A stretch of DNA of 64,000 bases. Source: Akkermansia muciniphila (GTDB lineage: Bacteria; Verrucomicrobiota; Verrucomicrobiia; Limisphaerales; BJHT01). The position numbers and the translations under genes are program-made. The notes below the pieces were generated by a model. That model searched no databases. It saw only the letters and a list, made by a program, of their open reading frames with translations, and was not told the origin of the DNA. The DNA lies in NCBI GenBank assembly GCA_945861535.1, contig CAMAUZ010000005.1, positions 72,272-136,271 on the forward strand, in the 5' to 3' direction. Position 1 is the stretch's first letter. Each line of letters opens with the position of its first letter. Below are positions 57,170-64,000 of this stretch, in pieces.

Positions 57170-59467
57170 TTATTTCCCCGGCACCTTGTTGATGGTGTTG
57201 TGAATCTCCGTGTTGATGGGCGTGCCATCGGCGGCTTTGAGGGTGAAGCGCACGCGCATCTGGTTGACGGGTTGGATCGCGGGGATTTCGAGGAACACGG
57301 TTTTCTTGTCGGCGAGGACGCGGACGGATTTCACCGCAACGGGGTCGTGGCCGATTTTGTCGGGGTTGGCCACGGAGTATTCCTTGGAGCCGTAGCTGGA
57401 GGTCCAGCGGTAGTTCCATTGCTCGACGCTGTAGTTTTGCAGGTCGCTGGCGGCGGAGGTTTCGAGTTCACCGGTGAAAGTTATTTCGAGGCCGTTGGGT
57501 TTCACATGGAGGTCGCGCGGCAGGTGGACGGGCTGGCCGGTGTAGCGGACGCGATGGAAGGCGCCGGTGCGCGGGCCTCGGGACTGCCACACGACGAGGC
57601 CGCACAGGTAGAGCTGGCCGTCGCGGTCGTTGAAGCGGCCGCGCATGATGCCGGACTCGAACTTGAGCGGGAGCTTGACCGCGCCGCCCTGGACCTGGCC
57701 GTTGACTTCTTCCATGCCGATCTTGAACAGCGCGCACGCGCCGTAGGAGGTGTGGAGCATGTCGCCCTTGAACGGCCCCCATTTGTCGCTGGTGACCCAG
57801 ACCTGGCCGCCGCTGGAGTTGTCGAGGTCGTAGGTGTGCGGGAGCCAGAAGATGGGCGCGTCGTGGTTGGTCGGCGGCGTGACGGTGTGCGCGGTGTGGA
57901 CGTGGCCGTAGAAGCCGCCGGGCTTCACGAGGCTGACGCGCGAACTGGGCACCCAGTTGCCCTCGTTGTCGCTGACGGTGAACTGGTCGTTCGGTCCGAC
58001 GGATGCGCCGTTGGGCGCACGGAGACCGTAGGCGACGACGTCGAGCTTGCTGCCGTCCTTGGAAACGCGGAGGAACGCGCCGTGGTGCTGGTGTTTCCAG
58101 CCGCCGAGATTGCCACCCTTGGCGAAGTAAAAGTTGCCCTGCGAATCGGTGTGGAGATCGAGACAGAACTCGTGGTAGTGCGAAGAGATGGCGACGTCGT
58201 TGTTGAAATTTTCGTAGAAGTCGGCCTCGCCGTCGTTGTTGAGGTCGTGCAGGCGGGTGATCTGGTCGCGGCCGAGGACGTACACTTTTTCATCGACGAT
58301 CTTCAGGCCGAGGGGCTGGAAGAGGCCGGTGGCAAAGCGTTTCCATTTGAGGCGCTCCAGCTTGTCGTCGATGCCGGAGACGATCCACACGTCGCCGCTG
58401 ACGGAGCAGAGCGCGGCGGTGGTGCCGGCCTTGAAGAAGTCGAAGCCGCTCGAACGCATCCAAGATTTCCACGGATTTCCGTCGAGGTCGGGCTGCGTGA
58501 TCGTGTCCACGACATAAGGGCCGGCGTTGGTGCCGAGGACGCCTTTGGTTTCGAGGACGGGCGTCCAGCGGGCGGATCCGCCCTTGGTGAGCGCGGCGAG
58601 GTCGGGCGCGGGGGCGAGGGTGGCTTTGGCGGCCTGATCGGCGGCGGTTTTGTCGCCGGCCCAGATGGCGACCTGAAATTTCGCGGTCGCGGGAAGCTCG
58701 GAGAAGTGGAGGAGCGTGCGGCCTTCGGCGGTGGTTTCGGTGCGGTGCTTCACGGTGCCGAGCACGCGGACGACGAGGGATTTTTCGGCGGGCAGTTTGT
58801 GGTCGGCGACGAGCAGCGTGAGCGGGCCGGACGCGCCGGTAATATCGAAGGAGCGGGTGAAGGTGCCGCTGGCGGAATCGAAGCCGGGCAGTTCCAGCAC
58901 GTTCGCGGTGCCGACGGTGTAGGAGAGAACGGTGCGCTTGCCATTGACATAGAGGCCGCGCCACTTGGCCCAAGCGCGGGGCAGCGGGCCGAAGGAGACG
59001 AGGTCGTTGCCTTCCTTCGAGGGCGGCTTCGGCTCGACGAATTTGCCGTCCTTGTCCGCCCACCCGGGGAGCACGCTGGCGGAGAAAGCGACGTCGCCGA
59101 CGGGTTGGGCAACCCCTTCGAGACCTTCGCGGCCGGTGGCGAGTTTGATAAAGCCGCCGGTCCACGCCAGCGCGAGACGCAGGCGCTCGGTGTCGAAGCA
59201 GACCGTGGCCTCGTCCTTGTCACCGACGCGGATGGAGAGGCCCTTGAGCGCGGGGCGCCACGAGGGATTACCGTTGCCGGCAGGGACGTTCAGACCGCCG
59301 GAATAGAAGGCGCCGAGGTCCATGTTGTCCCATTTGGTGCTGGAGGCGCGGGGCTTGGGCGCGGGTTTTTTGTCGGCGGGCTTTTTGTCCGCGGCGAGCG
59401 TGATCGCGGCCGCGCCGCAGAGGAGTGCGGCAACGAGCAGGGAGGATTTGAGGAGGTGTTTTTGCAT
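57170..59467 (-). CDS. Large secreted DUF6797-type PVC protein
   Basis: A 765-residue exported protein (signal MQKHLLKSSLLVAALLCGAAAITLA). A Lys/Pro tether is followed by the DUF6797-type head: KWDNMDLGAFYSGGL, NVPAGNGNPSWRPALKGLSIRVG, ATVCFDTERLRLALAWTGGF. A long beta-propeller follows (about 330-650): GDVWIVSGIDD, GLKIVDEKVYVLGRDQITRLHDLNNDGEADFYE, HTDSQGNFYFAKGG, YGLRAPNGASVGPNDQF, DNEGNWVPSSRV. The C-terminal beta domain ends near KVPGK. No CxxCH haem site. The function is unknown, probably a sugar or organic-acid-linked surface enzyme. Start at MQKHLLK. Confidence 0.85.
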   Translation of the reverse strand: MQKHLLKSSLLVAALLCGAAAITLAADKKPADKKPAPKPRASSTKWDNMDLGAFYSGGLNVPAGNGNPSWRPALKGLSIRVGDKDEATVCFDTERLRLALAWTGGFIKLATGREGLEGVAQPVGDVAFSASVLPGWADKDGKFVEPKPPSKEGNDLVSFGPLPRAWAKWRGLYVNGKRTVLSYTVGTANVLELPGFDSASGTFTRSFDITGASGPLTLLVADHKLPAEKSLVVRVLGTVKHRTETTAEGRTLLHFSELPATAKFQVAIWAGDKTAADQAAKATLAPAPDLAALTKGGSARWTPVLETKGVLGTNAGPYVVDTITQPDLDGNPWKSWMRSSGFDFFKAGTTAALCSVSGDVWIVSGIDDKLERLKWKRFATGLFQPLGLKIVDEKVYVLGRDQITRLHDLNNDGEADFYENFNNDVAISSHYHEFCLDLHTDSQGNFYFAKGGNLGGWKHQHHGAFLRVSKDGSKLDVVAYGLRAPNGASVGPNDQFTVSDNEGNWVPSSRVSLVKPGGFYGHVHTAHTVTPPTNHDAPIFWLPHTYDLDNSSGGQVWVTSDKWGPFKGDMLHTSYGACALFKIGMEEVNGQVQGGAVKLPLKFESGIMRGRFNDRDGQLYLCGLVVWQSRGPRTGAFHRVRYTGQPVHLPRDLHVKPNGLEITFTGELETSAASDLQNYSVEQWNYRWTSSYGSKEYSVANPDKIGHDPVAVKSVRVLADKKTVFLEIPAIQPVNQMRVRFTLKAADGTPINTEIHNTINKVPGK

Positions 59468-59561
59468 AATTAAAGTGCCGCAGCGTTGGCGGGTTGGGCG
59501 GGCAAAGACAATGCTGAATTCGGGGCGCGACGGTGCCGGGGCGCAGCCGCACACTGCCCCG

Positions 59562-59718: not shown

Positions 59719-59960
59719 GCGCACGGGCGGAGCGCGGCTGTGTCCCGCGCGGCGCGGGATCAGCCGCAGCGGCGACGTGGGGAGTGACGGCTATGGTCAT
59801 CGCAATGCCCTCGCGCGGTAGGTTCGTGCTGCGGCTGGTCGCTGCGACACAGCCGCGCTCCGGGCGCGCGGGCGGGCGGCGAGACGCCGCCCGAACTCGC
59901 AGGCGAGGACGCCTGCGCTACCAGTGCCGCGCGCGGACGCCGCTCCGCGCGCGAATGAAT

Positions 59961-59989
59961 TTGACCCAACTGGCCCGAACGACTAACTA
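59961..59989 (+). promoter_or_regulatory. Candidate promoter of the leu leader
   Basis: TTGACC (59961-59966), 17 bases, TAACTA (59984-59989; weak -10). The leader ATG begins ten bases after the -10, so the leader message would have almost no 5' UTR. Confidence 0.4.
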
Positions 59990-59998
59990 CACGCCGCA

Positions 59999-60067
59999 AT
60001 GAATCGGAACCTGCGACTGCTTGACCGGAACGTGCTGCTTACGGGCGGCGCGGCAGTTGGGTTCTGA
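59999..60067 (+). CDS. leuL: Leucine leader peptide
   Basis: A 22-codon frame, too short for most gene callers. It contains the stretch LRLLDRNVLL; five of 22 codons are Leu (60011, 60017, 60020, 60035, 60038), with Val at 12 and 20. The stop is TGA at 60065-60067. It is followed at the right distance by alternative hairpins and stands 173 bases before leuA. The role is to let a ribosome stall when Leu-tRNA is short, so that downstream folding favours read-through. The call rests on Leu content, position and the hairpins. Confidence 0.75.
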   Translation: MNRNLRLLDRNVLLTGGAAVGF

Positions 60068-60121
60068 TCGAAAGGCAGCTTTCCGAACCCCACCGCCAGC
60101 AACGGCAGTGGGGTTTTTATT
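60059..60121 (+). promoter_or_regulatory. Transcription attenuator upstream of leuA
   Basis: Antiterminator: GGGTTC (60059-60064) pairs with GAACCC (60085-60090), enclosing a GAAAG-GCAG-CTTTC hairpin (60070-60083). Terminator: CCCCAC (60088-60093) pairs with GTGGGG (60108-60113), extended by GCC/GGC, then TTTTTATTTT. The two structures share 60088-60090 and cannot coexist. A ribosome at the leader stop (60065-60067) would cover the antiterminator's left arm and allow termination. A ribosome stalled on the Leu codons would leave it free. Confidence 0.75.
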
Positions 60122-60240
60122 TTGAACCACCAGTGAACGCGAAGAGACATCCAGCCAGCCGGAGTGCGCCGCGCCTCGGGCGTGAACCGGTCCGTGCCCG
60201 GCTGCCGCTTTTCGTGGTCGCCCCTTAACCCGCGCCCCCC

Positions 60241-63200
60241 ATGTTAAAGCATCCCGCGACCAAATACCGGCCGCACCCGCCCGTGCATCTCCCCGGCCGC
60301 CAGTGGCCCGGCCGGGTGCTCACCGCCGCGCCCATCTGGTGCAGCGTGGACCTGCGCGACGGCAACCAGGCGCTCGCCGTCCCCATGAACATCGCGCAGA
60401 AGCTCGAACTGTTTCAGGCGCTCGTGAAGTGCGGTTTCAAGCAGATCGAAGTCGGGTTTCCGTCCGCGTCGAACACCGAGTTCGCCTTCAACCGCCGGCT
60501 CATCGAGGAGCACCGCATCCCGGATGACGTGACCATTCAAGTGCTCGTGCAGGCGCGCGAGGACTTGATTGAAAAAACCTTCCAGTCCCTCGTCGGCGCC
60601 AAGCGCGTCATCATCCACATGTATAACTCGACCTCGCCCGCGCAGCGCCGCGTCGTGTTCGGGAAGTCAAAGGACGAAATCAAGGCCATCGCCGTCCACG
60701 GGGCGAAACTGATTCAGGCCCGGCTGCACCGGCTCGCCGGCACGGACGTGACGCTCCAGTATTCGCCGGAGAGCTTCTCGGCGACCGAGGTGGAATTTGC
60801 CAAGGAAGTCTCCGAGGCCGTGATGGATGTGTGGCAGCCCACGCCGCAGCGGAAGATGATCCTGAACCTGCCCGACACGGTCCAGGTCGCGATGCCCAAT
60901 GTGTATGCGGACCAAATCGAGTGGATGTGTACCCACCTCAAAAACCGCGACTCACTCATCATCAGTCTGCACACCCACAACGACCGCAACACCGGCACCG
61001 CCGCCACCGAGCTGGGTTTGCTGGCCGGCGCGGACCGCGTCGAGGGCACGCTCTTTGGCAATGGTGAGCGCACCGGCAACCTCGACCTCGTCACCGTCGC
61101 GCTGAACCTCTACATGCACGGCATTGACCCGCAGCTCGACTTCAGCGACCTCAACGGCATCCGCGAGATCTATGAGCGCTGCACCCGCATGACAGTTCCC
61201 CCGCGCCATCCTTACGCGGGCGAACTGGTCTTCACCGCCTTCAGCGGCTCCCATCAGGACGCCATCAAAAAAGGTCTGGCCGAGCGGGACAAGGGTGGGC
61301 GCGAATTCTGGGACGTGCCGTATCTCACGATTGATCCGTGTGACATCGGCCGCGAATACCGCGAGGTCATTCGCGTGAACAGCCAGTCCGGCAAGGGCGG
61401 CGTGGCCTATCTGTTGGAGCAGGAACTCGGCGTGCCCCTGCCCAAGGACTTTCAACGGGAGTTCGGCACCATTGCCTCGTCGGTCATCGACCGTCTGGGC
61501 CGCGAAGTGTCTCCGGGAGAGATCAAGGAAGTATTTAATGGCGAATATTTGCAGGCCAACTGGCCCTGGCAGTTCGTCAAGATGACCGCGCTCAAAGAAG
61601 GGGCGGGCTTCCGGGTTAATTTTGATGTCTTGGAGCTGGGCTATCCGATCCCGGTTTCCGGGACGGGCCAGACCTGGATCCAGGCGGCCACGGCGGCGCT
61701 CAATCATCTGGTCACTCCGGTAGGATTGTGGTGGCAGCTTCACAGTCATGCCGACGAAGTATCCAGCACTGCCAGTGGGATTGGTAATATCGCGTTCGTA
61801 GAACTTAGTTTCGGCCGCGAGCAGCGGGTCTGGGGTGTCGGAACCGATCCCAACCACGAACAGGCTTTTGGGCGCGCGCTGATCAATGCCATGAACCGTG
61901 GCTATCCATGGTGTGCCGTCGAACACAAGAGCGGGCTGGTGCTGCCGGCCGATCTGCGCTTCGAATTTTCGCGCCGGGTTCGCCACCTCCAGCCCAATCA
62001 AGACCGCCCCATCACGTTGACTGCCTTGGAACGCACCTTCCTGGCAGAATACACGCTGATTGATCGCCCGCTTCCGTACGAGGCAAAGAAATGGAACGCC
62101 GAGCAATGCGCCGACTACATACTCAAGCATCGGATGCTGCGGGTCCGACAAAATGAAACCGAGATCAAACCCAACGCCGCCGGATCGTTCTCATGCTCGA
62201 TCGAGACCTTGGATGGCAAAAGCGTGCGGGGAGAAGGCACGGATACAATCCAAGCGTTTAGCGATGCGCTGTCCCAAGTCGTTGGAGTTACGGCTGAAAT
62301 CGTCGAGCTAACCACCGGGACGTCGGCTCCGGTAACCTCTGAAATCGTGGAATTCACCAAGGCCGAGTCGGCCTCAGTCTCGCGGTCTGTTTACATGGCC
62401 AAGCAGGAGAAATCGGCGTGTGTTCGCATCCGGCTCCAGAATGGCGAACTCATTTGGGGAGTAGGAATATCTAAGGCGGAAAAATATAGAACCAACGATG
62501 CCATCTTCCGGGCTTTGCAAGCGGCTTATCAATCCAGCAACCGACCTACCATGACACCACCCTCATCCGCTCCGCCGGAACCCACCAGCGCCCCCCGATC
62601 CAAGCAGTTCCCGTTCGATGAAATTGAACCCCGCTGGCAGAAGTCGTGGGATGAGCGGAAGGCGTTTCGCACCCCAAATCCCGGGGAGCCCGACTTCGAT
62701 GCCACCAAACCCAAGTTCTTCGTGCTGGATATGTTCCCCTACCCCAGCGGCAGCGGCCTGCATGTCGGACATCCCGAGGGTTACACGGCCACGGACATCA
62801 TTGCCCGCTACAAGCGCATGCAGGGCTTCAACGTCCTGCATCCCATGGGCTGGGATGCCTTCGGCCTGCCGGCGGAACAATACGCCATCACCACCGGCCA
62901 GCATCCGCGCGTGACCACCGAGAAGAACGTGAACAGCTTCCGCGGTCAGTTGAAGCGCCTCGGTTTCGCCTACGACTGGGACCGTGAGGTCAACACCACC
63001 GACCCGCATTACTTCAAGTGGACCCAATGGATTTTCCTGCAGTTGTATCAATCCTACTGCGATGAAAAAACCGGCAAAGCCCGCCCGGTAACCGAGCTCG
63101 AAGCCCAGGGTCTGAGTCGTGCTGAGATTGATGCGCGTCGTCTCGCCTATGTTTCCGAAGCCCCCGTGAACTGGTGCCCGCAACTCGGTACCGTTCTCGC

Positions 63201-64000
63201 CAATGAAGAAGTGGTGGATGGCAAAAGCGAGGTCGGCGGCTTTCCGGTGGAGCGTCGTCGCCTGCCCCAGTGGATGCTACGGATCACCAGCTATGCCCAG
63301 CGTCTCATCGATGAACTCGACGGCCTCGACTGGCCGGAAAGCATCAAGCTGCTCCAGCGCAACTGGATTGGTCGCAGCGACGGTGCCGAAGTTACCTTCC
63401 GTATCTCTGGCTTTGCCGAAACCCTGACCGTGTTCACCACCCGGCCCGACACTCTGTTCGGTGCGACCTACATGGTATTGGCCCCGGAACATCCCTTGGT
63501 GGACCGGCTCACCGCCGCCGACCAGCGCGACGCCGTAGAGACCTATCGCAAGTCCGTGGCCAGCAAGTCAGATCTGGAACGCACCGAACTGGCCAAGGAT
63601 AAGTCCGGTGTCTTCACCGGTGCCTACGCCATCAATCCCGTCAACGACGAGCGCATTCCCATCTGGATCGCTGATTACGTCCTCGTGACTTACGGCACGG
63701 GCGCCATCATGGCGGTGCCGGCCCACGATGCTCGTGATTACGAGTTCGCCCAGAAGTTTGGCCTGACTGTCACCCAGGTGGTGCAACCCCCGGAAGGGAA
63801 GGACTGGCAAGGCTTCACGGGTGATGGCATTGCGGTGAACTCAGCCTTTCTCAATGGTCAGTTCACGCCTGCGGCCAAGCAGAGCATCACTGCCTGGCTC
63901 GTGGAGAAGGGACTCGGCAAGGGTAAGATCAACTACAAGATGCGCGACTGGCTCTTCAGCCGCCAACGCTACTGGGGGGAACCTTTCCCTATCGTATGGG
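60241..64000 (+). CDS. 2-isopropylmalate synthase-leucyl-tRNA synthetase fusion (3' end outside window)
   Basis: One uninterrupted frame. Residues 1-420 are a type-2 LeuA catalytic domain: [12 protein letters not shown] (32-43), metal motif LHTHND (243-248), GNGERTGN. Residues about 421-560 and 591-765 are two related LeuA C-terminal regulatory units, each with an L/VWGVG...A...A...N-type ending. From about 766 a Pro/Ser/Thr-rich linker leads into class I Leu[15 protein letters not shown] (HIGH motif H841-H844), zinc/editing regions, TTRPDTLFG, and [13 protein letters not shown] at the edge. An internal ATG at codon 771 (62551) could serve as a separate leuS start, but no Shine-Dalgarno precedes it. 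LeuA makes 2-isopropylmalate; LeuRS charges tRNA-Leu. Confidence 0.88.

What the first reader, a model, noticed from the sequence alone, without database searches (positions are those of the whole stretch)
59961..60123. Leucine leader-peptide attenuator in front of leuA-leuS
A 22-codon ORF with five Leu codons is followed by an antiterminator (60059-60090) and a terminator (60088-60121) that share bases and exclude each other. The leader stop falls next to the left antiterminator arm, exactly where a translating ribosome would block it. This is the classic arrangement from enterobacterial leu operons, here with an almost leaderless leader ORF in a Verrucomicrobia-like genome and driving an aminoacyl-tRNA synthetase as well. 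Charging of tRNA-Leu would feed back on LeuRS supply.
Basis: partly seen in the sequence, partly recalled or inferred. Interest (0 to 1): 0.8.

Follow-up and report, generated by a model that had tools for sequence, protein, structure and literature searches.

The report
Leaderless leucine attenuator before leuA
A stretch of RNA in front of a leucine-making gene measures leucine supply by how far a ribosome gets through a tiny leucine-rich message; the same switch sits in front of leuA in most genomes of one Verrucomicrobia order, a phylum where I found no earlier report of it.

Summary
Window 59999-60067 encodes MNRNLRLLDRNVLLTGGAAVGF*, followed by an antiterminator and a strong intrinsic terminator that share bases. 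A covariance model of this leader finds it in 169 of 196 genomes of the order. Where the next gene could be read, it was always a leuA (55 of 55). The model finds nothing credible in 288 other genomes of the phylum. In 93 distinct leaders 30% of residues are Leu, against 5-6% in the other two frames. Leu codons vary synonymously, and both hairpins show compensatory changes. A TTGAC -35 box lies 33-40 nt before the leader start codon in 86 of 93, with almost no Shine-Dalgarno sites, so the leader is probably leaderless. I conclude that it is a ribosome-mediated leucine attenuator, without an Rfam match. The mechanism is known, and leaderless leu leaders are known in Actinobacteria. Two extras: it stands before two non-orthologous leuA types, and in the window's lineage the leuA behind it was apparently swapped in place while the switch was kept. 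The 'leuA-leuS' part is one 1638-codon open frame, unique among 320 genomes of the order, in a genome with a second leuS, so feedback on total LeuRS supply is doubtful.

The parts
59961..59966 (+). -35 element TTGACC
   Evidence: TTGAC at -40..-33 from the leader start in 86 of 93 relatives; shuffled expectation 0.6
59984..59989 (+). -10 element TAACTA after a 17-nt spacer (weak in the window; TAnnnT in many relatives)
59999..60067 (+). leader ORF MNRNLRLLDRNVLLTGGAAVGF*, probably translated leaderless; regulatory Leu codons 5, 7, 8, 13, 14
60003..60020 (+). region 1: 5' arm of the protector (anti-antiterminator) hairpin, inside the Leu codons
   Evidence: minimum free energy fold; in relatives a shorter version (alignment columns 44-52 with 67-76)
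60052..60064 (+). region 2: 5' arm of the antiterminator, within the codons for ..AAVGF
60085..60097 (+). region 3: 3' arm of the antiterminator and 5' arm of the terminator
60104..60123 (+). region 4: 3' arm of the terminator and its U-tract
60241..61908 (+). leuA domain (2-isopropylmalate synthase, NF002991/TIGR00970 type), controlled gene; start of a 1638-aa open frame
61909..62565 (+). in-frame linker of about 220 aa, weakly similar to LeuA C-terminal domains, unique to this genome
62566..64000 (+). leuS domain (leucine--tRNA ligase, TIGR00396), same open frame; runs on beyond the window end to C5:137428

Best explanation
This is a ribosome-mediated transcription attenuator that senses charged tRNA-Leu and controls leuA. 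Transcription starts at or within a few bases of the leader start codon (inferred from a fixed promoter-start spacing), and a ribosome begins on the nearly leaderless RNA. With enough Leu-tRNA it runs to the stop codon at 60065-60067 and covers region 2 (60052-60064). Region 3 (60085-60097) then pairs with region 4 and transcription ends in the U-tract at about 60118-60123. When Leu-tRNA is short, the ribosome stalls at Leu codons 5-8 or 13-14, region 2 stays free and pairs with region 3, the terminator cannot form, and leuA is transcribed. With no translation, region 1 (60003-60020) pairs with region 2 and termination is the default. Shown by sequence and comparison: the leader ORF, Leu-codon conservation, antiterminator and terminator pairing with compensatory changes, promoter position, and association with leuA. 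Inferred: transcription start, ribosome positions, response to leucine, and the default state from 1:2 pairing.
For: A covariance model finds the leader in 169 of 196 genomes of the order, before a leuA in 55 of 55 cases with a readable ORF. The four weak hits among 288 other phylum genomes show no leuA nearby. Leu is 30.5% of 2027 leader residues, against 5.4% and 6.3% in the other frames and 9.3% after shuffling. Codons at conserved Leu positions vary (CTG, TTG, CTA, TTA, CTT), so the amino acid is what is kept. Terminator: 96.9% of cells paired, 9 double changes against 2.5 in shuffles (0 of 500 reach it). Antiterminator: 896 of 960 pairs against 875 +- 3.6 shuffled (0 of 5000), and 10 double changes against 4.3 (3 of 500). 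Ala codon 23 is GCA or GCG in 87 of 88 and Gly is GGG in 83 of 86, as pairing demands. The antiterminator folds when the RNA is freed from the Leu codons onward and only as far as region 3; the terminator folds when the ribosome sits on the stop.
Against: No RNA or expression data. Covariation counts treat related sequences as independent, and in the 49 sequences outside the model's training set the antiterminator signal is weaker (18 of 5000 shuffles reach it). The 1:2 hairpin has few compensatory changes. Folded to completion, the stalled states also favour the terminator, so antitermination must be kinetic. The window's -10 box is a poor match to TATAAT, and the consensus promoter scan did not report it.
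Confidence: 0.93

Rival explanations
1. The leader peptide itself arrests the ribosome (nascent-chain sensing, as in erm or tnaC leaders), with the conserved C-terminal AAVGF as the arrest motif and not the Leu codons.
For: The C-terminal AAVGF is strongly conserved as amino acids.
Against: The C-terminal residues vary (VEV, VVV, AALV, AGGC and others), and in several cases changes in region 3 restore pairing (for example TGT with CCA, GCT with AGA). Codon third bases are restricted as pairing demands. The Leu enrichment would go unexplained.
Confidence: 0.03
2. A plain intrinsic terminator that ends a small RNA (or trims leuA transcription) without sensing leucine.
For: The terminator is the strongest single element, and terminated attenuator transcripts can act as small RNAs (rnTrpL of Sinorhizobium meliloti, PMC10117765).
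Against: It does not explain conserved Leu codons in one frame, the fixed promoter-start spacing, a second 5' arm competing for region 3, or the constant association with leuA. A terminated sRNA could exist as a by-product.
Confidence: 0.03
3. The leader is translated by coupling to a preceding 15-codon ORF (59955-60002, MNLTQLARTTNYTPQ*) whose stop overlaps the leader ATG, not from a leaderless start. This would change how the leader is initiated, not that it is an attenuator.
For: The overlap exists in the window and in the congener G001.
Against: The conserved -35 box lies inside that ORF, so its start would not be on the transcript. The upstream context in other relatives differs while the promoter is kept.
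Confidence: 0.05
4. Chance: a Leu-rich short ORF next to an unrelated hairpin.
For: Short ORFs are common in GC-rich intergenic DNA.
Against: The same layout recurs in 93 distinct relatives with frame-specific Leu enrichment.
Confidence: 0.005

Closest known systems
Enterobacterial leu operon attenuator (Leu_leader, Rfam RF00512)
   Same: Leu-codon leader peptide, protector, antiterminator and terminator hairpins, upstream of leuA (from general knowledge)
   Different: No covariance-model match; leader lacks a Shine-Dalgarno site and starts at the promoter; single gene rather than leuABCD
Leaderless leu leader peptides of Actinobacteria (Streptomyces lividans leuL1 before leuA and leuL2 before leuS; Corynebacterium glutamicum leuA leader)
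   Same: Leu-rich leader before leuA or leuS, leaderless in S. lividans (PMC8079986; PMC4046766)
   Different: Unrelated leader peptides (MRFGLLLLSCRGEGL, MRAVRLLLSEPR); S. lividans leuL1 lacks a typical terminator, while here a strong intrinsic terminator is conserved; different phylum
Sinorhizobium meliloti trpL / rnTrpL
   Same: Leaderless attenuator leader starting at the start codon, released as a small RNA (PMC10117765)
   Different: Senses Trp, different sequence and gene
T-box riboswitches
   Same: Sense uncharged tRNA to control amino-acid genes (general knowledge)
   Different: No T-box match in Rfam searches; sensing here is through a translated leader

Membership tests
Ribosome-mediated amino-acid attenuator | Short translated leader rich in codons for the regulated amino acid | tested here: met
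   30.5% Leu in frame against 5-6% in other frames; 4-9 Leu per leader in 93 leaders; translation itself not observed
Ribosome-mediated amino-acid attenuator | Mutually exclusive antiterminator and intrinsic terminator sharing an arm | tested here: met
Ribosome-mediated amino-acid attenuator | Protector hairpin (1:2) formed when the leader is not translated | tested here: inconclusive
   Predicted in the window and in the consensus, with few compensatory changes
Ribosome-mediated amino-acid attenuator | Leader stop placed so that a terminating ribosome masks the antiterminator arm | tested here: met
   Region 2 lies in the last codons before the stop in the 80 leaders analysed
Ribosome-mediated amino-acid attenuator | Upstream of a gene for the same amino acid | tested here: met
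   leuA in 55 of 55, 2-isopropylmalate synthase by NCBIfam
Ribosome-mediated amino-acid attenuator | Read-through rises when the amino acid or its charged tRNA is limiting | not testable with these tools
   needs RNA-seq or a reporter
Rfam Leu_leader (RF00512) | Match to the covariance model | tested here: not met
   no match at gathering score nor at E up to 10 in 59900-60300
T-box riboswitch | Match to the T-box covariance model | tested here: not met
Leaderless leader peptide | Transcription starts at the leader start codon | tested here: inconclusive
   -10 ends 6-7 nt before the start codon in 77 of 93 (9 nt in the window) and SD-like sites occur in 3 of 93; the start choice favoured promoter fit, and 5' ends are not mapped

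The most novel reading that the evidence does not exclude
In this lineage a leucine attenuator was kept while the gene behind it was replaced in place by a single-polypeptide LeuA-LeuRS fusion. One leucine-sensing switch would then set the supply of both the first leucine-pathway enzyme and an extra leucyl-tRNA synthetase in fixed ratio within one bifunctional protein.
Probability: 0.35. Interest if true: 0.7.

Novelty: new member of a known kind. Interest (0 to 1): 0.58.

Why it matters
A 2010 survey knew leader-peptide attenuation of amino-acid genes from Proteobacteria and Actinobacteria and added Firmicutes (PMC2965389). My literature searches, limited to open papers, found no report from Verrucomicrobiota. 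Here it is nearly universal in one order, with a fixed promoter-to-start distance that makes the promoter and leader one unit. It also shows a regulatory cassette staying in place while the gene it controls is exchanged, in a pair of genomes where the event can be read directly. The leaders give a ready comparative set for how ribosome position and RNA pairing constrain each codon.

Tried and rejected
Rfam search of the window, of the leader at a loose threshold and of nine relatives gave no family. Four weak model hits outside the order were inspected and rejected: terminators with no leuA nearby. A nascent-peptide arrest motif (AAVGF) was considered and rejected because the residues vary while pairing is often kept. 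Dual sensing of Asn was considered because Asn is 13% of leader residues; I attribute this to AAY-C pairing with the GGTT of region 2, which remains inference. An operon of leuA and leuS shared by relatives was looked for and not found. The script that located regions 2 and 3 failed on 13 of 93 leaders; these were left out of the pair counts, and some of them (for example the VEV group) pair less well.

Full report
Observation. The leader ORF at 59999-60067 reads MNRNLRLLDRNVLLTGGAAVGF*. The terminator at 60085-60116 plus U-tract folds at -21.0 kcal/mol, with 0 of 200 shuffles as stable. The antiterminator (60052-60064 with 60085-60097) shares its 3' arm with the terminator. The gene upstream is on the other strand, so the terminator belongs to a leader and not to a preceding gene.

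Conservation. leuA relatives were fetched from genomes of the same order and from public contigs. In 24 leaders, the window's included, the region upstream of leuA carries the same layout: a Leu-rich ORF ending in ..AAVGF-like codons, 16-24 nt, then a terminator. A covariance model built from these finds the leader in 169 of 196 genomes of the order. Among 288 other genomes of the phylum it gives four weak hits, none with a leuA nearby. Of 57 hits in the order that I examined, all 55 with a readable downstream ORF precede leuA.

Leu codons. In 93 distinct leaders Leu makes up 30.5% of residues, against 5.4% and 6.3% in the other frames and 9.3% in shuffled ORFs. Individual Leu positions use CTG, TTG, CTA, TTA and CTT, so selection acts on the amino acid. 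The codons near the end behave differently: Ala is GCA or GCG in 87 of 88, Gly is GGG in 83 of 86, and Phe is TTC or TTT matched to G or A in region 3 in many leaders, all as pairing with region 3 demands.

Pairing. Terminator: 4 of 12 pairs have changes on both sides, 9 such cells against 2.5 in shuffles, and sliding the partner destroys pairing. Antiterminator: 89% of cells paired on the alignment with 10 double-change cells against 4.3; with a bulge-aware hand alignment of 80 leaders, 896 of 960 against 875 +- 3.6. In the 49 not used to build the model the excess remains but is weaker (18 of 5000 shuffles reach it). Relatedness inflates such counts. Between the window and its congener G001 an outer terminator pair changes from A-U to G-C, on both sides (sequences).

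Promoter and start. TTGAC lies 33-40 nt before the leader start codon in 86 of 93 leaders (shuffled expectation 0.6), the spacer to the -10 is 17 nt in 77, and the -10 ends 6 or 7 nt before the start in 77. Start codons are mostly GTG. SD-like sites occur in 3 of 93. This points to leaderless translation. My choice of start codon used promoter fit as one criterion, so the spacing figures are somewhat favoured, but TTGAC occurs at this one place and hardly elsewhere in the 100 nt upstream. Leaderless leu leaders are known in Streptomyces (PMC8079986), and leaderless trpL in Sinorhizobium (PMC10117765).

Mechanism. Folding the RNA that each ribosome position would leave free gives the expected states for the window: terminator with the ribosome on the stop; antiterminator (-19.5 to -25.3 kcal/mol) when stalled at Leu codons and transcription has reached region 3; and 1:2 plus terminator without a ribosome. 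Folded to completion, the stalled states also favour the terminator, so antitermination must be kinetic, as in known attenuators.

What it controls. The attenuator stands before two non-orthologous kinds of 2-isopropylmalate synthase: type A (NF002991/TIGR00970-like, as in the window) and type B (TIGR00973, as in G001), 28% identical. Two genomes, G123 and G063, carry it before both kinds. Neighbouring genes of leuA differ between relatives, so leuA alone is the usual target. G000 and G001 share 87% identity over the 185-bp promoter-attenuator block (window 59940-60118), then have different leuA genes, and then share a 64-bp stretch that in G001 is the end of leuA-B and in G000 lies about 350 bp after leuS. 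The simplest reading is that leuA-B was replaced in place by leuA-A::leuS, with the attenuator kept and a scar of the old gene left.

leuA-leuS. From 60241 one open frame of 1638 codons covers LeuA, a 220-residue linker and LeuRS. LeuRS keeps its HIGH-like (HVGH) and KMSKS motifs. In 320 genomes of the order no other LeuA-LeuRS frame was seen, and the linker was found in no other of 196. A second leuS at G000:C78 resembles the congener's.

Verdict. A well-supported leucine attenuator without an Rfam family, ordinary in mechanism, new in phylum as far as my searches reach, with an instructive gene swap behind it.

Noticed in passing
window 60241-64000, continuing to G000:C5:137428 (L112:613-5529): LeuA, a 220-aa linker and leucyl-tRNA synthetase form one 1638-codon open frame, unique among 320 genomes of the order; a possible bifunctional fusion enzyme.
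   Followed up: partly
L112:5879-5940 (beyond the window end): Scar of a different leuA (type B, end of the gene) downstream of leuS: evidence that the gene behind the attenuator was replaced in place.
   Followed up: yes
G000:C78:29435-32662 (L151): Second leuS, about 63% identical to the fused copy over its larger part and like the congener's.
   Followed up: partly
window 60058 opposite 60091 (alignment A1 columns 72 and 113): Region 2 keeps a pyrimidine opposite C of region 3 in nearly all leaders, a conserved mismatch or bulge in the antiterminator that may tune its stability.
   Followed up: no
leader codons of relatives, for example VNRNLNLLLTNALLL: Asn is 13% of leader residues; perhaps due to AAY-C pairing with GGTT of region 2, or to leaderless initiation.
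   Followed up: partly
16-24 nt between leader stop and region 3 in relatives: A CGATTT-like motif recurs between leader stop and terminator in many relatives but not in the window, which has a small hairpin there.
   Followed up: no
window 57170-59473, minus strand: Divergent gene with a DUF6797 domain next to leuA; the congener's locus has a sigma-factor-like gene there instead.
   Followed up: no
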